From assembly GCF_001653235.2 (NCBI RefSeq), contig NC_035791.1, positions 620,001 to 684,000 of the forward strand: a DNA stretch of 64,000 nucleotides, given 5' to 3'. This document shows positions 39,372-59,655 of this stretch, one piece after another. A program made the translations under genes and the position numbers. The notes below the pieces were generated by a model. It had not been told where the DNA came from. It was given only the letters and a program-made list of their open reading frames with translations, and made no database searches. This stretch comes from Pochonia chlamydosporia 170 (lineage: Eukaryota; Ascomycota; Sordariomycetes; Hypocreales; Clavicipitaceae). Every line of letters starts with the position of its first letter. Within the stretch, counting starts at the first letter, position 1.

Positions 39372-41154
39372 CTATTCCATCTTGTTAAATAGAACCTTGA
39401 CCTCCTTCAAGCCTGGCCTGGCTTGGTCCCAAGTCACCTCTAGTCCTGACGCCTGTCCATCGGCCCCAAAACTGAATTTGGCTGCCACCGCGTCTCCCAG
39501 TTCTCGAGGCGCTTTCGAACTGCCGAGATACATGATCCAGTAATCGCCCGAGACGTGTCGCAGCACAAAGTCGAAAGGCATAATCATGTCTCCGCGATCG
39601 CCGACGAGGACTGTGGAGCTGGCGTCTTCTGGGTCGACTGCTTCCTTGATCTGGAGTGTGCCGTATCCTGCGTCGACATAGGTCCCGACAAGGCTACTAG
39701 GCTTTTTGCTTGGCGGGAGAGTTGGCGACGGTAGGTTGGGGTACAAAATTTCTGCGGCGTGGTCGAGCTTGTATCGATGGTCTTCCACTTGCTTCTTCAG
39801 TCTACAACTTTGTTAGTTTGCCCTGCAGATTGGATCCCTCTCCTCAGAGTTAGGCCGCCAACATACCCGCTTGAAAGATCGACGCGCTGGTCCGCAGGAA
39901 TCTTGAGTTTATCCTCGATCAACTTTCGTATGACAAGAGCCTCGACCGAGTTCGAAGAGCCGGCGGTATTACCGAACATCGCCACGGCATATTGCAAATC
40001 TGGAAGCCAGTAAACGTCGGTCCCGAAGGCCCCAGTTCCTCCATTGTGCGAGTACACGACCTGGCCGTGTAGGACAGTACGTCCCCAACCCAGACCATAT
40101 AACTCTACATCATTGCCCCTCGATGGTTCGGTCTCTTCTACCATCCGCGGTTTTCGAATCTCGGCATGAGTGCTGTTGGAAAAAGGCCCGGTTTGATACA
40201 AGAGACACTTTAGCCATTTTGAATAATCCAATACGTTGGAGACGATTCCGCCCGCGCCACTGGATTCTCGAACGGTGTCAGAGACGGGGCTGTATTCCTT
40301 AGTCTTTGGATCCCACACATAGCCATGCGCGAGCGGCTCGCCTCTATCTTCCGCCTCTTGTCGGTCTAGGTACGTAGATGTCATGCCCAGCGGCCCCCAA
40401 ATGACGTCTCGTAAAGCGTCTTTCAGTCCCTCGCCAGTGACGGTCTCAATCACATGCGCAAGGGTAATGTACATGAGGTTGCAGTACTGCCAAATCACAC
40501 GAGGCGGAGCAGTAGGGGGTAAATTTCGAAGATTTCGAACAATGTCCTGGTTCGACACACGTTTTCCATCTCTAAGACGAGCCCATGACAGGTCGTGACG
40601 AGGCATGCCTGTGCGATGACTAGCGGCGTCTTCCAACGTTATGTGGTTGGTAGACCACTCATCTTGAAGCACAAAGTCATCGCGGATGATGGAAGAAATT
40701 GGCGTGGACCAGCCGCCTTCGAGAACATGGTAGGATCCGTTTGAGATCAAATGAGCCAGCGTGGCATCGACAAACGCTTTGGTTGTTGAGCCTCCATGCC
40801 ATAGTGTCTCCGGAGTTGCTGGCGTATCCGGAAGAATTGCGAATCCGTAGCCCTGAAAAAAAGTTGGCATTCAAATAACGTTGAAGCAGTTGGCGGCCAT
40901 CAACACACCATTGCATGTACCTCTTGGCCATCGATAACGGCGATTGACACTCCTGGTACCTTCCACTCTTCCAGCAGATCGGTGATGTATTCCCCAAATT
41001 CATCTGTAAATGGGTTACCGGGCGTTGAATGATCCCTGGCAGCAGCACCAGCACCAACAATTGGTTGCTGAAATCGTGAAGCAATTGAAATTGGGCATTG
41101 TATCGCCAGCAATAGCGCTGCTGCTGGTAAGCCGAGACGCCTAATCCGTGCCAT
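39372..41154 (-). CDS. Secreted beta-lactamase-fold serine hydrolase
   Basis: Three exons, about 41154-40909, 40852-39867 and 39801-39372, encode 553 residues. Introns of 56 and 65 nt have donors GTGTGT and GTATGT and acceptors CAG and TAG; the second has an ACTAAC branch site. Junctions read EVHAMGYGFA and DLSSGLKKQVED. The ATG at 41154 opens a signal peptide (MARIRRLGLPAAALLLAIQC, ending near IAS, residue about 26). The serine beta-lactamase/penicillin-binding-protein triad motifs are present: SxxK as S104-T-T-K107, YxN as Y205-C-N207, and HNGGTG near residue 351 in place of KTG. Fungal members are esterases, peptidases or transacylases rather than antibiotic resistance enzymes; the substrate is unknown. 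It is divergent from the NRPS, so a role in processing or resistance to its product is possible but only inferred. Confidence 0.85.
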
Positions 41155-43219: not shown

Positions 43220-46200
43220 ATGGCGCCTGGGAAGATTGAAGAGGAGCGCACCGGCTTCGATCACTGGCGAAACAAAGCTGATGACTTATCGGGTAATTTG
43301 AATGCAAGCTTGGAGGAATGGCGACTCGAATCGGAACGGATAATTCTTCAACAAGCACTCATCAAAGATGCAAAGATTGTGCGGCTAGACCATTCGGGCA
43401 CTGACACAATATGGGTTGCCTTCATATCTCTCACCGATTCAGTCTCAGATAATCGGGAAACGGCAGTGTACACAGCACGAAAGGCATTGATGAAAGGTCG
43501 AAAATCTACCGGTAAAAAAAGTTTGCCAGTGCCTAAAAAATGGGCTGTTGTTGCAAACGTGTCTTCGATATCAACCAAGTCAATCGACGAGGAATCACTT
43601 GGAAGAATAATGACCGGATGCCCCGATGGTGATACGTTGGCGGCTCTGAAGCAAAATATTCGACATGCTTTGAAGAGAAAGGAGTTTGCTGGGGAAAATT
43701 TCGATTCAGAAGACTCCCATACCATCCCAATGGAAGAAGCTATGAAGTTGTTGTGGTGCCATGTACTAAGAGTCAGAGCTGAGTCAATTCAAAGCCATGA
43801 TACCTTTATGAGGCATGGCGGTGATTCAATAACAGCAATAGAACTTGCAACAACAGCCCGAGAATGTAACATCGGCATCGATGTTCCGACAATAATCCAG
43901 CATCCACGACTTCGCACCATGGCAGCAGCGGCGTGCTTGATAGAGCAGGAAGTAGTTGGGACCCCGGAGCCGTTTTCTCTGTTATCACCAATTGAACTTC
44001 CTGGAGTTTTGGAGACGGCCTACGAACAATGCGAAATGCTTAGAGACGAAACCATAGAAGACGCCTACCCTTGCAGCCCACTACAAGAAGGTCTCATGGG
44101 CTTGGCTATTAGGCAGCCTGGCTCATACATCACGCGCCGGTCGCAGCCGCTACCCCCGGATATAAACGTCAATCGATTCAAGGCGGCTTGGGAAAGAACC
44201 ATTAGCCAGTGTTCAAATCTTCGCACGAGGATTATAATGTGCAGAGTGGGAGCTGTCCAGATTGTCTGGGAAAACGACATATCTTGGGATGATCTCTCTC
44301 TTTCCCCACAATCGAGCACCGGACAGGACCTTCATGTGGCATATGGAACGAGGCTCAACCGCTACAGCATCTCTAGAGATCCTACTAGTGGTAGGTTTCA
44401 CTTCATATGGGTAATGCATCACTCCATTTTCGACGGATGGACAGTTCGCGCGATTCTCGAGCTGCTATATCAGCAATACTATCATTTGGAAGCTCCTCCA
44501 ATCACACCAGCACCGTACTCTGGGTATATCAGATACATCAAATCTAGCAAAATTACGTCTTCCATCGAATACTGGAGGAGTCAATTATCTGGTGCCAAAA
44601 GAGCAACATTTCCACCAAATGCCTCCTCGGACCGTCATAAGGAAGGAATAGCCGGCCATTACAAGCATGAAATATCTCTGCCAGGCATGAAACAAGAATC
44701 GATGACAATGGCCACGGTCCTACGGACAACCTGGGCAATTTTACTGAGCAGATATTGTGACACCAACGATATCTGCTTTGGAACTACGGTATCCGGTCGT
44801 CAAGCCCCCGTTGCCAGCCTGGATAGAATGCTTGGGCCGGTAATTGCGACAGTACCTGTGAGAATTCGCATTGAACCGCCCCAACCGATATCACAGATTC
44901 TTTTGACTGTACAGAACCAAGCAGTTGAGATGGTTAAACACGAACACTTTGGACTACAAAATATTGCCAAACTAAACCCTGACGCTAAGGACGCCTGCGA
45001 CTTTTCTAGCTTGTTCTTGATTCAGCCGGCTATCGACTTAACTCCTCGAAATGCAAATGACGGACAAATTCTTGCGTTTGGCAACCTGGCTGAGGAGGCA
45101 ATGCAGAGTTTCTTCAACTATCCGTTGTTGGTGCAGGCGCAAATATCCAGAAGCAACGACATCGAGCTGATAATGACCTACGACTCGGGGCTGTTACAAG
45201 AATTCCAAATCCAGGCGTTGTGCCATCAGTTTGACTGCGTTCTTCAACAACTGGCACGGTCAACTGCCTCAGATACGGTTGGCTCTGTATCCGTGGCCGG
45301 GGATTGGGATCTCCAACAAGCCATAAGGTGGAATGGCACTAAACAAGTAAAACTACTTGATGGTTACCCAGGTTTTGTACACGAATTTATATCGGACCGA
45401 GCTTTAAAGCAACCGGATTGCGAGGCAATCTACACATCCGCAGGATCCCTGACCTATCACCAATTGGAAGTTCAATCCACGAAATTTGCCAAGCTCTTAC
45501 AGCTGAATGGGGTCAAGCAAGGCATGATAGTCCCAATATGTCTCGAAAAGTCTATCTGGGCTGTGGTTGCCATGTTGGGTATCTTGAAAGCTGGTGGTGC
45601 TTTTCTCCCTTTGGATCCATCGCATCCCAAAGCTAGGAGACAAGGACTGATCGACCAAGTCAACGCCCAGCATTTGATTGTGTCACCGTTAGACTATGCT
45701 GCTAACAAGGACATGGCGAAGAATGTTTTACAGATTCATGAGAACTTTGATACGCCTATTTCATCCCCTAAATCCAGCAACTACGCCACCAACCTAACCT
45801 CAAACAACCCCATATACGTCCTGTTTACATCTGGGTCTACCGGTACACCGAAAGGCGTGTTGGTAGAACACGGAGCAGCCACAAAGAGTATATTGCAACA
45901 GATACTTAGTTTTGGATTTGGGAAGCACACCAGAACGATCCAATTTGCGGCATTTACATTTGATGTAGCCTTAATTGACATTTTTGGAACCCTGGTAGCT
46001 GGCGGCACTCTCTGCATTCCCAACTCAGAGGAGCGACTATACAACACGGATTCATACATCGAGGAAGCTTGTGTCAACACTGCTTTTCTAAGTCCATCTT
46101 TCTTGCAGACTTTGAATCCCGAGAAGGTGCCCAGTCTGAAGGTAGTCGTTCTTGGAGGCGAGGCCGCCACGCCAGACCTGGTACGAAGGTGGAACAAACA

Positions 46201-49200
46201 TGTAAGGTTGATAAATACGTATGGCCTCACAGAATCTTGCATTTGGAACACCATTCACGAATTTGGATCTGGAGATGAATCCCCACGAAACATTGGCCGC
46301 AGTTTTAACAGCAACTGTTGGATCGTGGATCATCATAATAATGATCGACTGGCACCAATTGGATGTGAGGGCGAGCTTGTTCTGCACGGTCCTTGTCTTG
46401 CACGAGGGTATGTGAACGATAAACTATTGACTGATAGCGTATTCAAGCAATCGTTCCAATGGCTTCCAACGAACATTTCTACGGGTGGAAAACACTGGAG
46501 GTTCTTAAAAACTGGCGACCTCGCGAGATATGCACCAAATGGTGACATCGAGCTTATTGGAAGAAGAGACACACAAGTCAAGTTAAGGGGCAGGCGAATC
46601 GAACTTCACGAAATCGAGTCGGTGATCAAATCAGTCCAGTCCGAGTTTACGCATGTTGCTGTGGATCTCGTCCATCTACGAGAACGGGATCACCTCGTTG
46701 CATTTATTTGTTCGAAGCCACAGATTAATGTAGACACCTCAGAGCACGCGACTGCGTTGGATGGTTCTGTTGATGTCTTGACCGCCGAAGACACCATGCC
46801 AGCAGGTCTCGCAGAGAAGCTGGGCGACCTGCTTCCAACCTACATGACTCCCTCATTCATTTTACCTATCAAATTCATGCCATTCACAACATCTTTGAAG
46901 CTAGATAGAAAGAAGCTGAGAGCTTACGCACAAAGACTTCCACCTGAGAAGCTTGGAGAGTTTACTGCAGAGGAGAGCGAAAAGGCACCACCGATAACTG
47001 ATATGGAGCACCAACTTCGTGATTTGTGGGCAGATGTTCTACAAATTAAAGCGGATGACATTGGTCGAAGGGACAGCTTCATGAAAATCGGAGGAGACTC
47101 CATTTCAGCTATTTCACTGACCTCACTTGCTCGAGAACAAGGAATCAAGCTTTCGGCTGCACGTATATTCGAGATGCCACGACTTTCCGAGATGGCACTG
47201 GCGGCCGTACGAACAGATTGCTCCACGACGACAATAACAACAAAGCAATTCAGTATGATTCCGACAAAAATGTTAAACACCTTTCTAACGACGGTGCGCG
47301 AAAAGTGTGATTTGCAACATAGTCAAGAAATTGAGGATGCTTTTCCGTGCACACCACTCCAGGAAGGGTTGATGGGACTATCCATCAAGGATCCTGGCTC
47401 ATATCTAACAAGACGAGTAATTCGACTTCCGGAGCATGTTTCAATTGCCAAGTTTCGTCTTGCATGGGACAAAACCGTAATACAATGTGCCAATTTAAGA
47501 ACCCGCATAGTATCGCATGATGGAAAGACTTTCCAAGTCATCGTCAAAGATGACATATCGTGGCAGCACACAGCAATATCTGGCGATCCATCAACAGCTC
47601 TGAAGAACGTTGAAATAGGTTACGGAAGCAGGCTATGCTACTACGAATTGATTGAGGGAGACGGAGGGGCAGCGTATTTCGCACTTTGTTTACAGCATGC
47701 CATTTACGATGGATGGGCTATAAGAATTGTGCTGGATGTATTACAACAAGCGTATGATGGAGGCCCTCCGCTTATACTGCATCCATATTCATCATTTGTC
47801 GAACGCATACATGCTACGGACAGGAGCTCTGCTCAAGCATACTGGCTAGAACAACTAGCTGGCGCAAAAGGAGCAAATTTCCCGGAACCTCCGACTTCTG
47901 GCAAGGTGGCCGAACGGAAAATGCCTGCCATGGACCATTCAAAAAGTTACTTCTCGATGTCACTACTGAAAGGTTCCCAATTTACGACAGCGACGGTCCT
48001 TCGGGCTGCTTGGGCCATCGTTCTCGCAGAGTACTGTGACACAGCTGACATTTGCTTTGGAGCGACGGTATCCGGCAGACAAGCCTCGGCTCCTGGGATA
48101 GAACTAATGGCCGGGCCAACTATAGCAACAGTGCCCGTGAGGATAAAGCTTGATAAAGAGTTAACCGTGTCTTCGTTCTTATTAGCCGTTCAGAATCAAG
48201 CCTCAGAGATGGTCGTGTACGAGCAGTTCGGAATGCGAAACATTTCACGGTTGAGTGAAGACATTCGCGAGACATGCAACTTCACAAGTCTTTTAGTTAT
48301 TCAGCCGCATAATAAGTCTGGATCGACGAGCGACAGACCTGCTCTGCTACCACTGGGCACGGTAGTGGACGAAGCTGCTAATATGTTTGCAAAATATCCC
48401 CTTGTGGTGCAGGTTGGCTTGACGGGATCCGACACCGTCGAGCTCGCGATTAGTTACGATAGTGCGATACTGACCGCAGAAGAGGTTGTGGCACTTTCGC
48501 ATCAAATTGGACATGTCGCCTTGCAACTGGTTCATCAACAAGACCAGCGGCTCGCCTCGGTTTCTGTGGCTGGATCGTGGGACCTGCGCCAGATTCAGAA
48601 ATGGAACAATGAGCTTCAGTTGAGAAATGATGAAGCCTGCGTTCTTGATTTGATATCTATGAGAGTTGAACAAACTCCATACAAGGAGGCGATTTATTCA
48701 ACGAACAGCTGTTTATCTTACTCCGAACTAGATCGCCAAGCTACAAAGTTTGCCTTCTACCTCGCTCAAATAGGTGTCCGACGGGGAAGCATTATTCCAA
48801 TTTGCTTTGAAAAGTCCATTTGGGCAGTCATTGCGATTCTGGGGATTCTCAAAGTTGGCGGAGTCTATGTTCCCTTGGACGCTGCAAGTCCCATCGGTCG
48901 GCGCAAAGGTTTGGTAGAACAAGTGGACGCAGCGATTATTGTTGTCTCACCGTTACAAGAGATATCATGCAAGGGTCTAGCAAACAGGATAGTTGTAATA
49001 TCTGGAGAATTTTTACGCCAAGTTCCTGAGCAGGAAACGATTGTCCGCCATGATCTATCACCGTCTGATCCAGCTTACATCTTCTTCACATCTGGGACAA
49101 CGGGCAAACCGAAAGGTATCGTCGTTCATCACAGGGCACTGTCTTGCAGTATAAAAGCCCACTCAATCAGATACGGAATTTCCAACCGTACACGACTATT

Positions 49201-52200
49201 CGAATTCTCTCACTACAACTTTGATGTTAACGTTATGAACATCTTCTGCACATTGACCGAAGGGGGGACCGTTTGTATTCCGACAGAAGAAGAGAGACTG
49301 TATACCCCGTCAGACTTCATGACAAGAGCCCGAGTTGACTTCGCCTGCTTTGCACCGTCGTTTGCAAGAACCATTCGCCCGCAAAGCGTTCCACATTTGA
49401 AGACCTTGCTTGTTGGCGGCGAGGCTCTGGCGAAAGATGTACAGGAAATGTGGTGCAATGAAGTCAAGCTCATTAATGGGTACGGTCCTACGGAGACCAC
49501 CATTAGCTGTGTGGCTTATGATGTGGTATCTTCAAATCGCTCCCCTAACGTCATTGGGAAACCTTTCGCAAATGACTGCTATCTGGTAAATCCTGATGAC
49601 CACAACCGACTCACGGCGGTTGGGTGTGTTGGCGAATTAATCATCCACGGACACAACGTTGCGCAAGGATACTTCAATAATAAGGAAATAACCAAGCAAG
49701 TATTCTTGGAAGGTGTTGATTTCTTAGGACCAGAATTGTGCGGAGACACTCGAAGGTTCTACAAAACGGGTGATTTGGTCAAATATCTACCTGATGGCAA
49801 TATTCTGTACCTGGGAAGAAAGGACACCCAAGTCAAGATTCGAGGCAAGAGAATCGAAATCGGGGAGATCGAAGCCACGATGAAAGGAACAATCTCTGGA
49901 GTCAAACACGTCGCTGTTGAACTTGTGCGGCTCAATACTCGCGAGGCGTTGGTGGGATTTGTATGCTTTGACCTCGAAACAACAGAATTGCAGCGCGACA
50001 CATTGGAAAAGACGAATCACCCTGACATAATTCCGTTGGATGATGCAATTAAAAAAGTTCTCCTCAAAGCAATTAGTTCCATGAAGGAGACCTTGCCGGC
50101 TTATATGATTCCGTCTATATTCATACCTCTCCGCATTTTCCCGTTCTTTTCATCATTAAAATTGGATAGGAAGACTTTGCAGGGAATTGCTACGTGCTTG
50201 GATTCAAAACAAATTGCGGCCTTCAATTTGGCGAGCAAGTCAAAAGTCCCACCTTCTACGGACATGGAGATGAAGCTTCAAGTGCTGTGGGCTCAAGTGT
50301 TAAAGATCAGACAAGAAGAAATTGGCAAACACGACAGCTTCCTGCAAATTGGTGGTGATTCGATAAGTGCAATAGAACTGGCGACAATCTCAAAGGAGCA
50401 GGGAATAAATATCACCGTTGCCAACGTTTTTGAGGCACCGCAGTTGGAGTCACTAGCGGCCATTGCTATTAAGAACAGCCAGGGCGTAAGCAGCGAAAAT
50501 GTCAAGATTTATAAACCATTCGGCTTAGTCGGTAAGCCTGAATCGGAGAATATTATGACAGAGATAGAACAACAGTGTGGATTACCATCGACAGACGAAA
50601 TTGAAGACGTCTTCCCTTGCACCCCTCTACAAGAAGGTCTCATGGCACTGGCAGAGAAACATCCTGGGTCATATGTCGGCAAACAGTTGTACGAAATTCC
50701 TCGTCATGTCGATATCGAGCTATTCAAATGGGCATGGGATCAGACCGTTCAGTTGTGCTGTAACCTTCGGACTAGAATCGTTTGGGTGAAGAGCAAGTCG
50801 TGGCAGGTTCTCCTGAAGACGACGCAAGATTGGGAGTTCATGAACCTCAAGACGGCCACTGACGCTATGGATTCGCTATCCAACACCAAGATGCGGTACG
50901 GAGCTCCTCTTTGTCGTTACTCGCTTGTCCGGAGCGATAGCGTGTTTTATTTTGCGATTTCTATTCATCATGCGGTTTTTGATGGTTGGACCGTGAACAT
51001 TATCATGGACACTTTACACAGGATGTACTATCGCAAGGACGTTCCCCATTTGCAGCCCTACTCCAATTTTATCAATTATACATTGTCTGTTGATGTCACG
51101 GACGCACAGGAATACTGGAAAAGGCAGCTTGAAGGGGCAGAAGGAGCTCGATTTCCACCGCGATCAAATCAGGAAATCGTCTCAGGCTGCACTTCCATGG
51201 TAAAGAAAAAGGTAGCATTTGGCAATTCAAGGGAGACTTCCATAACAAAAGCTTCCATCTTACGTGCTGCTTGGGCGATTGTCATGGCACAATACGGGAT
51301 GACCGACGACATTTGTTTCGGCGCAACAGTGTCAGGACGACTGGCTTCCGTACCGGGAATCGCTAATATGACAGGTTTAACGATTGCGACGGTACCAGTT
51401 CGCGTTAAACTTGACTCGCAACAGTCTGCTTTATCATTCTTACAGGACATCCAACACCAGTCGTCTGACATGGTAGCCTACGAGCAACTTGGTCTACAAA
51501 ATATTGCGAAAGTCAGTCATTCCGCTAAAATGGCATGTGAATTCAACAGCCTGTTTGTAGTGCAGCCAGTTCAGAGAAGCCAAGAGCCCGGTCATGATGG
51601 TAAACGCATTCTGCAGGCTGCTGAAATTAGTGAGCAAGTCGTCCTGGACTCTGCAGATAGTTACTTCAACTTTCCCCTTACCGCGCAGTGCATCTTGAAC
51701 GAAAAAGAAGTTGAGCTTCATTTGACGTTTCAAACAGATGTACTGTCAAAATTTGAAGTCACAGCATTGTCGAATCATTTCAGCCATGTCTTCAGCCAAC
51801 TTCTATCCCAAGACAGCACGCCGTTAGGAAAAGTATCGGTTTCCGGCCACTGGGATGCTGACACAAAGGCTGGATGGCAAAATACAGATCAGGGCTTGGC
51901 GATTGTTGATCCTCGAAATCATCATAACCTGGCGCCGATTGGATGTATTGGAGAACTGCTTTACATTGGTACAAATGTATCTGTGAAATACCCCGACAGT
52001 ACGGAACTTAACTTCGATGACAATCCAGACTGGGCGACTTCGTTGTTGAGCGATGGCAGGAAAGCCTTCAGAACCGGCCAGCTTGTCCGTTACTCAGAGA
52101 CTGGAACTATTATTGCTATGGGTAAAATGGAGGGCGCCAAAACACGACAATCCCGTGTTGTGGTTCAGGATAGTCTGCAAAAGTATCCCTCAGCTCGGGA

Positions 52201-55200
52201 CAAGAGGAGTTTGATGGAGACCGAGGCGAGCCTTAGCACTTTGTGGGCACAAGTTTTGGGCTTAGACGATGACGACGTATCTCAAAGTGATAACTTCCTC
52301 GAGATCGGAGGCGATTCAATAAATGCCATTGAATTGGTTGCACTGGCGCAGAGACAAGGCATTAATTTGACTGTGCCTATGGTATTTCGCAATCCAGAGC
52401 TGGCGTCTATGGCACGAGCAGCGGCAGTAAACCTCAAAGAGATCACTTATGAGGCATCCCCCTTTAGCTTGATTGAATCCCCTTTGGCCGCTGAGTTGGA
52501 ATCTAACGTGGTTACCAGCTGCGGTCTCTCATCCTTTGACGAGGTTGAGGATTTGTATCCTTGCACTGCGCTCCAAACAGGACTCATGGCTCTCACTGTT
52601 ACGCAGCCAGGGTCGTATGTAAACAAGAGCGTCTTCAAGGTGGACAAAGCTACTGATACGGAAAGATTTATTGCTGCGTGGAACCAAACAGTTGCGACCT
52701 TTACAAATCTCCGCACGAGAATAATCCTCGATTCTGGTCGTGCTCTACAAGTCATCACCAAAAAGGGGACCGCATGGGAACTCAATCCGTTGGACCTGAA
52801 GGTTGAAAATATTCGAATGGGCTACGGTCAGCCTCTCTGCCGTTATGGCCTCGACAGAGATGCTCAAGGGGATGAAGTGTTTGTATTGGTGATGCACCAT
52901 GCAATTTACGACGGATGGACTATGAATCTCATGGCAAATGCCTTCCGGAGGGCATATAGCGGTGAAACCGGAACGCAATTGCAGCCTTATGCAAATTTTA
53001 TAAAATACAATCTGTCTCTGGACAGTCAGGATGCTGCCTCATATTGGACAGCATACCTTGACGGCGCCACACCATCATCGTTTCCTGATTCAAAACGTAC
53101 TCGGAAGAAGGGAATGGCTGGTGGTTCCGGCTCATTGAGCAAAAGGGTCTTGTTACCGAAAGCTCTGGAGTCTCCAGCAACGAAAGCAACACATGTTCAG
53201 GCCGCCTGGACATTGCTCCTCTCGAGATACTGCGCTTCAAATGATGTGTGTTTTGGAACTACAGTTTCTGGCAGGCAAGCGCCAGTTTATGGATTGAACA
53301 ACATGCCAGGCCCAACGGTGGCTACAATCCCGGTAAGAGTTCGACTCGAAAGGTTGGAAACTATGTCGCAGCTTCTCTCGGCATTGCAAGAAGACTCGTC
53401 CAATTGTGTCCCACATGAGCAGTTTGGTGTGCAAAATATTGCCAAAGTCAGCCCAGAGGCACAGGCTGCCTGCACCTTTTCAAATCTACTCGTCATTCAG
53501 CCCGGATTTGAGGGCTCTACGACGAGACCAGGAGATCCAATGTTACTTCAACCTCAATCGACAGAGTCAACCGTGGGAGATATGAACAGCAATTTTTTCA
53601 ACTACCCGTTGGTGATTCAGGCTTTTCTGTCAGAAGACGAAGTGGAATTCTTCTTCACGTATGACCGGAGAGTTATAACCGCACAGCAGCTCGAGGCTGT
53701 ATCAAATCAGCTGGATCATGTTTTAAAGCAAATGTGCGATAAGAAGGACCAACCGCTTTCCGAGATATCGCTTGTTGGACCGTGGGAGATGGAACATGCT
53801 ATTCGGGCCAGTGCGCTTCGAGAACCTACACATGCATGCACCCATTGGCAAATACTGGAGCAAATCCAAAACCGACCGAATGATGAAGCAATCTCGGCTT
53901 GGGACCAGACTCTTACATACGCGGAGCTTGGGGCTCTTGCATCCCGACTCGCCCAAGAGTTGGTTAGGTCAGGTGTTGGATCGAATTCGCCTGTTGCAGT
54001 GTGTTTTGAGAAATCATCATGGGCAGTGGTAGCGATGCTGGCAATACAATACGCCGGAGGCTCAATTGTGCCGGTTGATTCAGCGACGCCAAGGCACCGT
54101 CGTGCGGTCATTATTCAGGAAACCGGGTCTCGATTTGCCTTGGTCTCACGACAGTTTCATCAGACATTCGGAGATATGGGCATTCCAACTTTTGTCGTTG
54201 ACGACGAAGCTGTGTCTAGCTTACCAGGTGCTGAACAGTTTGTGCCACCTGAGATCCAGCCAAGTAACGTCAGCGTAACTCTCTTCACATCGGGGAGCAC
54301 CGGAAAGCCGAAGGGAATTCTGCTCACCCACGAAAACATTTGTTCTTCAGCAGATGGTTACGGTGCTCAAATGTCAATTGGACCTGGGGCAAGAGTGTTC
54401 CAGTTCTCATCATATGCCTTTGATGTGGCCATCCTTGACATATTTACAACTTTGATCCGAGGCGGATGCCTTTGCATTCCTTCTGATCATGATAGAATGT
54501 ATGATCTTGCCGGTGCTATCATGCGATCAGAAGCCAATTGGGCATTTCTGACACCAACTGTTGCGAATACGCTATCACCAAAAGACGTACCATGTTTGAC
54601 GGCCCTGTGCCTTGGAGGAGAAGCTGTATCAGAAACCACAATACAGCAATGGAGAGATCATGATATTCAGCTGTACAGTGGTTACGGACCGGCTGAGTCG
54701 TCCATATGCTCCTCGAATTCGTGCATAGTCACAGCTGAAACCCCAACCAACATCGGAAGACCAATATCAAGCGCGTTCTGGGTGGTCGAGCCGTCAAATG
54801 AGCGCAAATTAGTGCCAGTTGGTTGTGTTGGAGAACTTCTCATTCAAGGCCCGTTACTGGCAAAGGGATACCTCAACAGTGACGCAACTTCTAATGGCAA
54901 GTGGCTTGAAAACATTGATTGGTTACCGAAAGGGTTTCCGTCCAGAGGGTTTCTCACGGGAGACTTGGTACAGCGGAATGCGACGGCACATTTGCATATA
55001 TTGGAAGAAAGGACACTCAGGTCAAACTGCATGGACAACGCATAGAGCTAGCAGAGATTGAACACCATATCTCTGTAGCCTTACTTGAGGCTGATACCGT
55101 AGTTGTTGACCTTGTTCAATGGAATGACAACCAGGCTCTCACTGCCTTCATCAGCTTACCCCGTGATGCTAATAGGGCCAAGCTTGCCAGCATTTCACCC

Positions 55201-56856
55201 AAGCTTTCTGCTGCTTTACCATCAGCAATGATCCCGAAATATTACATCCCAATGCAAAAGATGCCGATGACCCTGTCAGGCAAGTTAGACAGGGCAAGCT
55301 TACGCAAAACTGCCGCAGAAATGACACCAGCGCAGCTACTGCAATTTACAAGCACTGGGTACCGCGCGTCTCGCCCTTGTAGCACAGAACTAGAGCTGAG
55401 CATACGGCATCATTGGTCCGAGGTACTGGGAATACCAGAGTCTACTATAGGAGCTGAGGATAACTTTTACCATCTTGGTGGAGATTCCATCAGAATTGTG
55501 ACTCTAGCTCAGCGTATTCTGAAGGCATACGGCGTCACACTTGGACTATGGCTCATAAATAGCAAGGACACCACTGTTGCTTCCATGGCAGAATTGATTG
55601 AGAGCACTGCCGTTGGCGAAGGATTAAGAAAGGTGCCGACTCTCAACCTCGAAATGGAGTTTGATTCCATCGTCAACCAGGCTTGGAATCTGAGGAACGT
55701 AGTTGACAGCCCGATCACAAAGCTACCTAAAAACGCTACAGTCTTCCTCACAGGCGGCACAGGATACCTGGGGACCGAAATTCTCAGACAACTGCTTGCA
55801 TCAGATAACATCTGCAGAGTCATCATATTAGTACGAGCCAAATCAACCTCCCACGGCCTTGAACGTGTCAAACGAACAGCCCAAATTGCAGGTTGGTGGG
55901 ATTCTGCCAACACCGACAAAATAACTATCTGGCAAGGCGATCTTGCCAAGCCGAACCTTGGTCTTTCAGAGGATAATCTACGACACCTACAGGGCAAATC
56001 AACAACACACATCCACGCCATTATTCACAATGGGGCAGTCGTGAACTGGAACGCAGACTACAACAAACTTCGTCGCGCAAACATCGATTCTACAGTCCAA
56101 CTCCTCCGACTAGCCACTTCCTCCACAGCAACCAAATTCGTCTTCGTCTCAGGCGGCATGAAAGAAACAGACCAGTACAACAACGAAGATCTCTTCGCCA
56201 AATTACTCCCCAAATGCGGCTACGTACAAACGAAAATCATGGCGGAACGAATAATCCTCGAGATCGCGTCACGACTACCCGCGCTCCAAAACCGGATATC
56301 AGTCGTCAAGCCAGGTCTTATTATTGGCCCGACACAAACTGGAGTTGCGAATATAGATGACTTTCTGTGGCGCGCAGCAGCTACGGCCGTTTCGATGGGC
56401 AAGTGTCCTCTCGAAGGAGAAGCATGGCTGCACATTGCTGACGTGGAGTATGTTTCTGGCATAATAATCAATCAGGTATTCTCTTCGGAGATATGCACGT
56501 CGGTAGACATGCTGGAGGGGATGTACATGTCCACGTTTTGGGACCTGATTCACCAGGAACTCTGTCTTGAATACGATACTATCCCCTTTCCAGAGTGGGT
56601 TAAACTGGCGCTCGAGCAAGTGAATCGTGTTGGGGAGAGACATCCTCTCTGGGCGGCTCAGCACTTCTTGACGCAGCCTGATGGGCAATCTTCTCGCCCG
56701 GATGGGTACGTTACACCCCAGGATATGTGTGACGCTATGAGGAGTAATGTGCGGTATCTGGAGGGAATTGGCTTTATTAGACGGTCAATTGGGGGGTTGG
56801 GTATCGTGAATGGGGATGTGATTGGTAGGTCAAACATGGCAGATTATGAAGAGTGA
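43220..56856 (+). CDS. Nonribosomal peptide synthetase with terminal reductase, frame break
   Basis: Intronless, about 4545 codons if read through one frame break. ATG at 43220 follows an in-frame TAG 51 nt upstream. Domains (nt): A C-terminal relic 43220-43710; T 43730-43950 (GGDSI); C1 44050-45290 (HHSIFDG); A1 45360-46960 (TSGSTGTPKG); T 47005-47210; C2 47290-48590 (QHAIYDG); A2 48640-50215 (TSGTTGKPKG); T 50240-50470; C3 50530-51860 (HHAVFDG); A relic 51880-52190; T 52200-52440; C4 52480-53800 (HHAIYDG); A 53850-55350 (TSGSTGKPKG, broken near 54970); T 55380-55600; reductase 55720-56790 with TGGTGYLG and the YVQTK catalytic pair at 56221-56235. Terminal R domains release the peptide as aldehyde or alcohol with NADPH. 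Product unknown. Stop lies 106 bp from the convergent subtilase stop. Confidence 0.9.
51880..52190 (+). other. Residual adenylation domain inside the NRPS
   Basis: Between C3 and the following T domain only about 100 residues remain where a full adenylation domain needs about 500. The stretch starts directly at an A6-like segment (AIVDPRNHHNLAPIGCIGEL, which aligns with CWIVDHHNNDRLAPIGCEGE of A1) and continues through a TGQLVRYSETG remnant of A7. The ATP-binding TSGSTGKPKG loop, the FDxx and YGPTE specificity regions and the RGxRIEL motif are all absent. The deletion is in frame, so the downstream T and C domains stay readable. It cannot activate an amino acid. Confidence 0.85.
54965..54980 (+). 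other. Frame break in the last adenylation domain
   Basis: Up to TGDLVQ (A7 motif) the protein is in one frame; from CDGTFAYIGRKDTQVKL (A8 region) the homologous sequence continues in another frame. Spacing between the two conserved blocks is one base short of the in-frame spacing seen in A1 and A2. No GT-AG intron of realistic length can bridge them because homology is continuous on both sides. Unbroken translation stops at 55045, before the last T and the reductase. It is either a real one-base deletion or a base-calling/assembly error next to a G run. Confidence 0.85.
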
Positions 56857-56962: not shown

Positions 56963-59655
56963 TCACTTGTTATACTTGATATAAAAGGACTGCGTCGAAG
57001 CCACATCCCAATCCTCCTTCTTCTTAGCATCGCCGTATATTCTCAGCGCCCTCATAACAAACTTGTACTTCCCAGCGGGGGCATACTTCTCCGAATCAAG
57101 CTTACCATCCCAGGACCACCAACTAATCCCCCTGGAATTCCAATAGCTAGGGAACCCAAAAGGTTGGCCAATGGACTTCACACCCATCACCTCAGTGGTG
57201 AGATTCTTGGGCGGACAAGTCGTCATGGGGATGATATCGACTCGAATCTGTGAAGATCCAAGAGCGAGGCCAATGTACACTGCTGGCAGGACATCCTGGC
57301 TACCTGCTTTTCCGGGGGGTGGGAGATTGAATGTAGTGTTGTTAGGAACCTTGACGTAGTTCTTGGAGTCGTTGGAGTTGAAAATCCAAGATTGATCGGA
57401 GGCAAGGACAGTGGCTTTACCAAGAGAGCCTGTGAGACCCTGGTACGGCATGGAGAGGGACGAGCCGTCTGTGCCGTTGACAGTGATGTATCCGGACCAG
57501 AGGGGGAGGCGAGAGGCGTCAAGGCCAGACGGTGGGGTGGGCATAACTTCAACAACGACTTGTTTTCCGGGGGCGACGGTAACGCTATCCTGGGAGAATT
57601 TGAGACTGGCATACGAGTCGACTGCGTCGTTGGGGAAAGCCATGGGGTATATGGACCCTTTTTGAAGAGTGTACATGGTCAAGGATGCGACTTGGTTGAG
57701 CTTGTATGTGACAGAACTTTTGCCAGTATTGGAGATGGTAAAGTTGAGCTCGCGGGCTAAATGGTCTGTGTCGTTGAAGGACAAGCTGGATGGGGATAGT
57801 AAGGAGGTGGTGTATGCGGCATCGTATGCCTGCACCATGCCGCCGCCCTGTTGGGCAGCCGGTGCGAATTTGTTGGAGAACTGCTTGCCGTCGTTGAAGA
57901 GCTGGGGGTTGGCGGTGGCAGAGAGAAGGTTGTTGATTAGTTCGGGATTGCGCGTGCCTCGCACTTGGGAAACCAAGGCGATGATGGCGGCTGTGATGGG
58001 GCACGACATGGAAGTGCCGGACAAGACGGCGTAGCTGCCCTTGGCGACTGGGTATGTCGACAGGATATTGCCTCCTGGAGCTCCGATTTGGGGTTTGAAG
58101 TCCATCTCCCAGGTTGGGCCCCAAGAGGAAAAGAGACTGATCGATCCTCCAGTGAGAGTGTTGTTGACTTGGCCGACTACGGAGGCGGCCTTGCTAAAGG
58201 AGGTGATGTCCAAGGTGACTGTAGATCCGGCCTTGAGGCTGTTGACCCAAGCAGCACCCGTCTCGGGGGTCACCATGCCAGCACCTTTCATGAGGGAAGC
58301 AGAATCTCCGAGTGTTGGGGCGAAATCGCCAGCAACATTGTTGTAAACCATCATATACTTGGCGCCCTTGGCAGCCAAGTTGACGGCCTTGTCGGCGAAG
58401 AGGCATGTACCACGTCGAACAAGCACAATATATTTGCTAAGATCGGGTGTATTCGCGGGAAGTGGAGTGCAAGCGTCATTGGCGATTGTGGTATCAAAGC
58501 TCGTGGCATAGAGAGGCATTGAGACGCTGGCAAGTGCTGGTGTGCCCGGCACGTAGAGGAAATCAGTCTTCTTTGCGCCATCGACACTGAAACTGGCTTG
58601 AAACTGCACAGACGGCGTGAGGACGTTGTCATATGACGCTACGGCGGTGACCTTCTTGCCGTTGGCTGCGGTACTGATATAAAACAAGCCATGGTCGCCA
58701 TCATTGCCAGCTGAGATGGTGCAGGGCACACCTTGCTCGACAATTCGGGAAACGGCGACGGCCCATGGTTCTTCGGTCCAGCCCCGAGCTCCAACAATAG
58801 AAGCGCTGATAATCTGGGCACCATCCTCGAAGGCTTTGTTAAAGGCAGAGATAAGAATATCAGTGCCAGCCAGGCCATCGCATCCAAACACGCGGTACGC
58901 TCCGAGTGTAACACTGGGCGCTGCACCAGTAAAGCCATGCACATTTGGCTGGGCGGCGACAATGCCAGCAACGTGCGATCCATGACCTTGGCAATCCATG
59001 GGGTCATTGTCAGGAACCGGGGTATTGTAGCCCGTGTAATCATCACCGACAAGATCGGTACCAAATGAGACCAAGCAGCCCTTTCCAAAGCAGTTGTTGC
59101 CCAGAGCAGGGTGCGTGTAGTCAATACCTGTGTCGATAATGGCTACTCGTACACCCTTTCCAGTAATGCCCTTGGCTCTGAGCTTGTCGACCTGAGTCAT
59201 GATGTGAGGTGAGAAGGTGTCAGCGGTTTTGTGGTCTCGTGCTGAGACTTTGCCAGGTGCTGGTGTTCCGACTACTCTCACATTGGCGTCGGGTACACCA
59301 AAGAGGTCAATTGGCCAGATGTGCTTGACTGCTGGCATCTGTGCAATCTTTTGTGCCTTCTTCTCGGCATTTTTAACATCGTGTAGCTGAATAGATACAC
59401 CCTTGAAGAGCTTGTAGTCGAGCTTCATACGGGTGGTAACTTCACCATTGAGAGCGCCGACAACGGCTGAGGCATCCTAAGTATCAACCGAGTCAGCTAA
59501 TTGTACTTTCTGATGATTTACATTTGGAATAATAAGGTCATACTTACATGGCCGTCTTCGAGCTCCACGATATAACCTCCCGGAACTCGGGCTGCGGCAG
59601 CCAGAGCTGTGGCCGCAGTCGCAAGAAGCGACATGAACATGGCGGTCCGAACCAT
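56963..59655 (-). CDS. Secreted subtilisin-like serine protease (S8, PA insert)
   Basis: Two exons, 59655-59548 and 59476-56963, encode 873 residues. The 71-nt intron has donor GTAAGT and acceptor TAG; the junction reads ELEDGHDASAVV. The ATG at 59655 follows an in-frame TAA and opens a signal peptide (FMSLLATAATALAAAA). An I9-like propeptide (YIVELEDG...) precedes the S8 domain with catalytic Asp151 (AIIDTGID), His201 (GHGSHVAG) and Ser525 (GTSMSCP). A protease-associated (PA) domain is inserted between His and Ser (around DACTPLPANTPDLSKYIVLV), and a C-terminal Fn3-like region follows (about 620-760). This layout is that of the large Vpr/C5a-peptidase-like fungal subtilases, including Pr1C-type cuticle-degrading enzymes of insect pathogens; that assignment is by family. 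Extracellular protein digestion is the expected role. Confidence 0.92.

What the first reader, a model, noticed from the sequence alone, without database searches (positions are those of the whole stretch)
43220..56856. NRPS with five carrier domains but only three full-length adenylation domains, ending in a reductase
Seen: the order is (A relic)-T-C-A-T-C-A-T-C-(A relic)-T-C-A-T-R. Both the first and the fourth carrier domain lack a usable adenylation partner, yet their GGDSI phosphopantetheine sites and the adjoining condensation motifs are intact and the frame stays open for more than 3900 codons. Known: R domains release aldehydes or alcohols. Inference: either a partner adenylation protein loads the two orphan carriers in trans, or the existing domains load them, or those modules are skipped. 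I do not recognise a described synthetase with this exact order.
Basis: partly seen in the sequence, partly recalled or inferred. Interest (0 to 1): 0.75.

Follow-up and report, generated by a model that had tools for sequence, protein, structure and literature searches.

The report
Fungal peptide synthetase with borrowed loading
A large fungal peptide-making enzyme has one building station that lost its own amino-acid loader, and its relatives share the loss, so a neighbouring loader probably serves that station; this is a new example of a known trick, in a kind of enzyme where I did not find it described.

Summary
The domain order is real: T-C-A-T-C-A-T-C-(A remnant)-T-C-A-T-R, behind an N-terminal A-like remnant. 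One point was missed. The 3957-codon frame ends inside the last A domain; the rest of that A, with T and R, lies in another frame. A 95% identical relative, P0003, reads through. The window gene is therefore either recently broken or misassembled.

The internal A-less module is no lone decayed allele. Three Cordycipitaceae proteins (P0043, P0044, P0065) have exactly this order; P0183 and P0194 are one module shorter. A careful tree groups the C domains of the A-less modules (99/93); a quick tree of 973 did not. T4 keeps its serine motif in 7 of 7 members checked, window included. The N-terminal T1 or C1 motifs are broken in three members.

Most likely mechanism: the A domain of module 3 also loads T4, as reported for the truncated "dA" module of SidD and shown for A-less modules of SidC (PMC10192304). 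The product would be X2-X3-X3-X5, released reductively. The remnant is the A-core beta-barrel, predicted still to fold. This is a new variant of a known kind.

The parts
43220..55045 (+). NRPS, first reading frame (ATG at 43220; the frame is open from 43172), ends inside the last A domain
54919..56856 (+). NRPS, second reading frame: C-terminal part of the last A domain, T5 and reductase
43325..43675 (+). N-terminal remnant resembling the C-terminal A subdomain (A-sub), common to T-first NRPSs
43721..43936 (+). T1, orphan carrier, HGGDS
44042..45280 (+). C1 (HHSIFDG)
45347..46876 (+). A2, full length, pocket residues DVILVGTIW
46994..47209 (+). T2
47318..48556 (+). C2 (QHAIYDG: first histidine replaced, second kept)
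48602..50137 (+). A3, full length, pocket residues DVMFLGGIS; proposed loader of T3 and T4
50255..50470 (+). T3
50588..51829 (+). C3, C domain of the A-less module (HHAVFDG)
51863..52168 (+). A remnant of module 4: only the third (beta-barrel) subdomain of the A core, model positions 326-406 of 506
52211..52426 (+). T4, orphan carrier, IGGDS
52532..53761 (+). C4 (HHAIYDG)
53807..55260 (+). A5, last A domain, split over two frames near 54,980; pocket residues DVLLCGGIC
55381..55593 (+). T5
55714..56706 (+). R, thioester reductase (TGGTGYLG and YVQTK present)

Best explanation
This is a T-initiated, reductase-terminated fungal NRPS whose fourth module lost the catalytic two thirds of its A domain, and more, before the window's lineage and the Cordycipitaceae lineage separated. 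The module stays in use because the intact A domain of module 3 loads both its own carrier T3 and the orphan T4, as the A domains of SidD and SidC do with downstream carriers. The chain would be (starter on T1)-X2-X3-X3-X5, with the same residue at positions 3 and 4, released by R as an aldehyde or alcohol. T1 either carries a starter group supplied in trans or is vestigial; the relatives point to a dispensable role. Shown: the domain order, the missing A core, the shared architecture, the conserved T4 serine motif and C motifs, and the fold prediction of the remnant. Inferred: loading of T4 by A3, the repeated residue, and the nature of the starter.
For: (a) Same order in P0043, P0044 and P0065 (38, 38 and 37% identity to P0001). 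P0183 and P0194 are shorter forms with the same A-less penultimate module. (b) Counterpart domains group together in quick trees: A2 0.933, last A (with P0090) 0.981, A2+A3 of all members 0.954, R (with P0090) 0.935, C1 0.951, C4 0.984. The C domain before the A-less module groups at 98 (quick IQ-TREE) and 99/93 (careful). (c) T4 GGDS is present in 7 of 7 members checked, window included. The C domains on both sides keep the second histidine and DG in all 7 members shown. (d) P0001 and P0003 align without a gap through the remnant. The remnant differs at 7 of 93 residues and T4 at 6 of 72, not significantly more than the rest (P 0.21 and 0.16). In the P0043/P0044 pair the remnant is 82.8% identical, the whole protein 83.3%. 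(e) No further A domain found by NRPS-trained profiles in the window or 50 kb of flanks. (f) PMC10192304 (section 4 read, passages): the dA of SidD/Nps6 lacks about 290 N-terminal residues, and the authors' earlier work had SidD A1 load T1 and T2; SidC A3 loads T4 and T5, and T5 only when its C domain is present. (g) The pocket of the A upstream of the A-less module is similar across the family: DVMFLGGIS, DIILLGGVS, DIILIGAVS, DVILVGGVS, DVTLVGGVS.
Against: I found no biochemistry on any member. The quick tree of 973 C domains put the window's C3 with P0014_C5, P0168_C2 and P0083_C2 (0.83) and the Cordycipitaceae C3 elsewhere, so common origin of the A-less module rests on the IQ-TREE trees. 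In one search C1 of the window with P0043 and P0065 is only 90/58 (95/95 with P0090_C1), and C2 does not group firmly with its counterpart (85/39). A3 groups with its counterparts at only 0.642. P0011 lacks A4 too, but its C3 does not join the group. The remnant is no more conserved than the linkers. The window copy itself is frame-broken. A3 and A5 were not distinguished as donors by any result here; A3 is preferred by precedent only. P0003's record starts just before C1 and says nothing about T1.
Confidence: 0.55

Rival explanations
1. T4 is loaded in trans by a separate A or A-T protein encoded elsewhere in the genome, as in syringomycin (SyrB1) or albicidin (Alb04).
For: Trans loading of A-less or inactive-A modules is documented in bacteria (PMC8949500 passages). 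The genome has further A domains elsewhere (which scored only 14 of 133 candidates).
Against: No further A domain found in the window or 50 kb of flanks. The neighbourhoods of the relatives could not be read here.
Confidence: 0.14
2. T4 is loaded by the downstream A5 instead of A3, so the repeated residue would be at positions 4 and 5.
For: The A5 pocket is the most conserved of the family, DVLLCG(G/L)IC. The C4-A5-T5-R half is well grouped.
Against: In SidD and SidC the donor lies upstream of the orphan carriers.
Confidence: 0.12
3. Module 4 is skipped: T4 is never charged, and the chain passes from T3 to T5 or over an empty T4.
For: Skipped domains are described for another NRPS system (PMC8949500 passages).
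Against: T4 serine motif kept in 7 of 7 members checked and both flanking C motifs kept. T1-C1 shows that units in this family can lose their motifs.
Confidence: 0.12
4. In this strain the gene is a pseudogene or the assembly is wrong: the protein ends inside A5 and makes nothing, or the frame break is a sequencing error in an intact gene.
For: Frame change near 54,980 with no room for an intron. P0003 is intact there. The A-sub stretch just after the change is the most diverged domain piece measured against P0003: 16 of 93 residues differ, against 9 of 93 in A2 and 0 of 93 in A3, which would fit some relaxed constraint.
Against: Both frames stay open and close to P0003: 95.2% over the aligned part of the first, 93.9% over 624 residues of the second, with T5 97.2% and R 96.1%. 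Any real break is therefore probably young. It does not touch the A-less module shared by the family.
Confidence: 0.5
5. T1 takes a polyketide or fatty acyl starter from a partner enzyme, making a lipopeptide aldehyde or alcohol.
For: T-first NRPSs with the same N-terminal A-sub remnant are common here (34 of 232 proteins). In leucinostatin, PKSs plus an acyl-CoA ligase are thought to feed the first module (PMC4946873 passages).
Against: The nearest ketoacyl synthase match on this contig ends at C2:407267, over 200 kb away, and no further A-type domain was found near. C1 motif broken in P0043, T1 and C1 motifs broken in P0044 and P0065.
Confidence: 0.35

Closest known systems
SidD / NPS6 fusarinine synthetases (fungal siderophore NRPSs with a dA module)
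   Same: An internal module whose A domain lacks about 290 N-terminal residues, with an intact A in the module before it; SidD A1 is reported to load both carriers (PMC10192304).
   Different: Here the enzyme starts with T and ends with R, and in my trees its domains group with those of other fungal multimodular NRPSs (no siderophore synthetase was placed in them on purpose). The remnant is also cut at its C-terminal end.
SidC / NPS2 / Sib1 ferrichrome synthetases
   Same: A-less T-C units loaded by another module's A domain (shown for SidC), and differential loss of A domains among members (PMC10192304, PMC2644324).
   Different: No terminal C release and no T-C repeats; a terminal reductase instead.
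P0043 (Akanthomyces muscarius LMH87_003225), P0044 (A. lecanii LLEC1_02215), P0065 (Aphanocladium album PWT90_06554)
   Same: Identical domain order including the A-less penultimate module and R; counterpart domains group in trees.
   Different: 38, 38 and 37% identity to P0001. Their remnant keeps the A-sub part as well (model 320 or 325 to 505), and their C1 and partly T1 motifs are broken.
Mannopeptimycin NRPS [C-A-T-E-C-A-T-C-T-E]
   Same: One A serves its own T and the T of the following A-less module (PMC8949500 passages).
   Different: Bacterial (recalled), with E domains and no A remnant mentioned.
Peptaibol synthetases (Trichoderma Tex1 type) and leucinostatin LcsA
   Same: Hypocrealean; reductase-type release is described (listing; passages). 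Several fetched Trichoderma proteins share the A pocket DVLLCGLIC.
   Different: Longer; LcsA is described as ten C-A-PCP modules (PMC4946873 passages); some fetched Trichoderma relatives have fused PKS domains.

Membership tests
Fungal NRPS with a truncated-A (dA) module | A domain lacks its N-terminal part (about 290 residues in SidD/Nps6), including the ATP-binding core motifs | tested here: met
   No match to model positions 1-325 or 407-506; the A3-type motif is absent
Fungal NRPS with a truncated-A (dA) module | T and C of the module intact | tested here: met
   IGGDS, HHAVFDG, HHAIYDG; by motif only
Fungal NRPS with a truncated-A (dA) module | Intact A in an upstream module | tested here: met
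   A3 at 48602-50137, full length
Fungal NRPS with a truncated-A (dA) module | Orphan T loaded by that upstream A | not testable with these tools
   Needs an enzyme assay
Hydroxamate siderophore synthetase (SidC/SidD/NPS6) | Release by a terminal C domain | tested here: not met
   Terminal thioester reductase
Peptaibol synthetase | Terminal reductase | tested here: met
Peptaibol synthetase | Aib-type A pockets (DLG.LAG.F, recalled) | tested here: not met
   Pockets are DVILVGTIW, DVMFLGGIS, DVLLCGGIC
Peptaibol synthetase | N-terminal KS-AT starter domains (recalled; seen in some fetched Trichoderma proteins) | tested here: not met
   Pfam finds only A, C and T families in the first frame; no ketoacyl synthase match in the window or within 200 kb on its contig
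Lone decayed allele of an ordinary five-module NRPS | Relatives carry a complete A at module 4 | tested here: not met
   P0003, P0043, P0044, P0065 all lack it; so do P0183, P0194 and P0206 at the matching module

The most novel reading that the evidence does not exclude
The remnant is not debris but a kept part. In several fungal NRPSs, A-domain loss repeatedly leaves a piece that begins at the same structural border (model W326, start of the beta-barrel subdomain). That piece can probably fold alone (an equivalent piece of the FscH adenylation domain was crystallised with its MbtH-like partner, PDB 6eby) and may act as a spacer or docking face that lets the upstream A domain reach the orphan carrier, so that A-less modules are a selected way of making repeated residues.
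Probability: 0.2. Interest if true: 0.6.

Novelty: new variant of a known kind. Interest (0 to 1): 0.42.

Why it matters
Product prediction from NRPS genes commonly assumes one A per carrier. If A3 serves T4, a reading of this gene by that rule gives one residue too few. The family also gives a natural series for asking how a module survives loss of its loader: barrel plus A-sub in Cordycipitaceae, barrel only in the window, nothing left in P0194. It would extend inter-module loading, which in fungi I saw shown only for siderophore synthetases, to a reductase-ended family.

Tried and rejected
Missed upstream A exon: tblastn of three of the A domains against the window, and a six-frame profile scan, found none before the gene (the one hit at 43652-43837 is T1).

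Intron at the frame change: rejected, because homology is continuous to within a few codons on both sides.

Independent origins of the A-less module in the window and the Cordycipitaceae: suggested by the quick tree, not by two later trees. The 75-row set (partly a random draw) and the 50-row set were chosen by me from 973 C domains; one search warned of long branches among its outer rows.

Amino-acid specificity: the pocket residues were read with anchor positions recalled from GrsA PheA. DVLLCGLIC resembles, from recall only, a proline pocket of peptaibol synthetases. [quoted passage not shown] I make no substrate claim.

Selection test on DNA: not done, since the DNA of P0003 and of the other relatives was not available to me. 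Organism: not identified.

Published description of this synthetase family: not found (open-licence PubMed Central only; listings seen).
Full report
WHAT WAS CLAIMED.

THE OBSERVATION. An ATG at 43220 lies in a frame that is open to 55045. Pfam gives 3 A, 4 C and 4 T stretches in it, and T plus NAD_binding_4 in the overlapping frame 54919-56856. NCBIfam names the latter a thioester reductase domain (TIGR01746, 243.6 bits, cut-off 213.35). Profiles built here, seeded with the window's own domains and widened with fetched relatives, place each domain (coordinates under parts). The A remnant of module 4 scores 51.9 bits and matches only model positions 326-406 of 506. No further A, C, T or R domain was found in the window or in 50 kb of flanking sequence. 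The order is therefore confirmed.

The long frame ends inside the last A domain; the end of that A, T5 and R are in another frame. tblastn hits of one query to the last A stop at 54973 in one frame and restart at 54982 in the other, so there is no room for an intron. P0003, a protein from an unnamed Logan contig whose record starts just before C1, is 95.2% identical over 3649 residues without a gap and has this A in one frame. The second window frame is 93.9% identical to P0003 over 624 residues: T5 97.2%, R 96.1%, but only 82.8% (16 of 93 differ) in the A-sub stretch just after the change, against 90.3% and 100% for the same stretch in A2 and A3. The window copy is thus either recently broken or carries an assembly error; the low value would fit some relaxed constraint.

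THE N-TERMINAL REMNANT. The 183 residues before T1 match the A-sub profile weakly alone (6.3 bits, E 0.001 in a two-sequence search). As a family of 34 T-first proteins among the 232 held they match clearly (hhalign probability 98, E 2.4e-13, 97 columns). It is the C-terminal A subdomain, a frequent start of the T-first NRPSs fetched.

RELATIVES. Three searches (the first and last list only the best 120 of 772 and of 1307) gave 230 proteins, 232 with the two window frames. P0043, P0044 and P0065 (Akanthomyces muscarius, A. lecanii, Aphanocladium album) have exactly the window's order, with a longer remnant (model 320 or 325 to 505). P0183 is T-C-A-T-C-(remnant 325-503)-T-C-A-T-R; P0194 is T-C-A-T-C-T-C-A-T-R with no remnant; P0206 is a cut form of the latter; P0090 is T-C-A-T-C-A-T-C-A-T-R; P0011 lacks A4 without remnant and has two more modules.

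TREES. In a FastTree of 963 A domains the window's A2 groups with the Cordycipitaceae A2 (0.933), A2 and A3 of all members form one group (0.954), and the last A groups with theirs and P0090 (0.981). A3 alone groups at only 0.642. Among 43 R domains the family plus P0090 groups at 0.935. Among 973 C domains, C1 (0.951) and C4 (0.984) group with their counterparts, but C3, the C of the A-less module, did not. In an IQ-TREE set of 75 rows (98) and a careful mixture-model tree of 50 rows (99/93) all eight C domains of these A-less modules group together. In one search C4 again groups (97/91), C1 groups at 95/95 with P0090_C1 but only 90/58 without it, and C2 does not group firmly (85/39). P0011's C3 stays apart. 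I read this as one origin of the A-less module before the lineages split, with that discord stated.

CONSTRAINT. Against P0003 the remnant differs at 7 of 93 residues, T4 at 6 of 72, linkers at 19 of 274, and the whole first frame at 175 of 3648. Neither remnant nor T4 differs significantly from the rest, but the remnant is no more conserved than the linkers, so this is weak evidence for function of the remnant itself. The P0043/P0044 pair gives 82.8% in the remnant and 83.3% overall. T4 keeps GGDS in 7 of 7 proteins listed (the window, P0003, P0043, P0044, P0065, P0183, P0194). The C domains before and after it keep the second histidine and DG in all 7 members shown (P0001, P0043, P0044, P0065, P0183, P0194, P0206). 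By contrast, at the N-terminus the T1 serine motif is lost in P0044 and P0065. The C1 motif is broken in P0043, P0044 and P0065 (HAAVHDV, HASVCDA, HNAIYDA) and altered in P0183 (HHAIYDF). The window keeps HGGDS and HHSIFDG, and P0194 and P0206 keep C1 and the T1 serine with GGN instead of GGD. The two orphans thus have different fates: the internal carrier is kept, the N-terminal unit looks dispensable in some relatives.

MECHANISM. PMC10192304 (section 4 read; passages) describes truncated A domains in SidD and Nps6 lacking about 290 N-terminal residues. It states from the authors' earlier work that SidD A1 loads T1 and T2, and shows that SidC A3 loads T4 and T5 of A-less modules, T5 only when the C domain in front of it is present. 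PMC2644324 (passages) describes differential loss of A domains among ferrichrome synthetases. PMC8949500 (passages) gives mannopeptimycin, where one A serves two carriers. PMC12400406 (start of abstract in a listing) reports an A-less capreomycin module loaded by another module's A. The window has the same geometry: A3-T3-C3-(remnant)-T4. I therefore think A3 charges T4, giving a repeated residue at positions 3 and 4, then X5 and reductive release. This is inference by precedent; nothing here separates A3 from A5 as donor. For T1, a starter supplied in trans or a vestigial unit are both open; no PKS or further A domain was found nearby.

NOVELTY. dA modules and inter-module loading are known. 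A conserved A-less module in a T-first, reductase-ended family shared by the window's fungus and Cordycipitaceae was not found described. I call it a new variant of a known kind.

Noticed in passing
window 54919-55045: Frame change inside the last A domain; the relative P0003 is intact there. Error or young break, not decided. The A-sub stretch after it is only 82.8% identical to P0003.
   Followed up: partly
window 39372-40870 (-): Serine hydrolase of the beta-lactamase family (PF00144) with a DUF3471 part in the next frame, divergent from the NRPS; possibly a cluster gene.
   Followed up: partly
window 56963-59476 (-): Subtilase (PF00082, PA, Fn3-like), convergent with the NRPS, 3' ends about 107 bases apart. 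A protease beside a possible peptide-aldehyde synthetase may be chance or a self-protection target.
   Followed up: no
G000:C1:412450-439923 (-) and 467923-495369 (+): C domains of two giant open NRPS frames (10062 and 10009 aa) on opposite strands, of peptaibol-synthetase size.
   Followed up: no
window 47318-48556: C2 has QHAIYDG instead of HHxxxDG, also in P0003; it is the least conserved C domain between the two (89.6%), while C1 is 98.5%.
   Followed up: partly
P0044 and P0065, T1; P0043, P0044 and P0065, C1: Carrier serine and condensation motifs lost at the N-terminal starter unit in relatives, though the later modules keep theirs.
   Followed up: yes
G000: The genome has 44.2 Mb in 49 contigs, close in size to the 44.57 Mb published for Lecanicillium fungicola (PMC6509529, whole text read). 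Size alone identifies nothing.
   Followed up: no
L001 (G000:C2:684001-694000): Two Zn2Cys6-type transcription factor genes about 1 to 9 kb beyond the window end, possible cluster regulators.
   Followed up: partly
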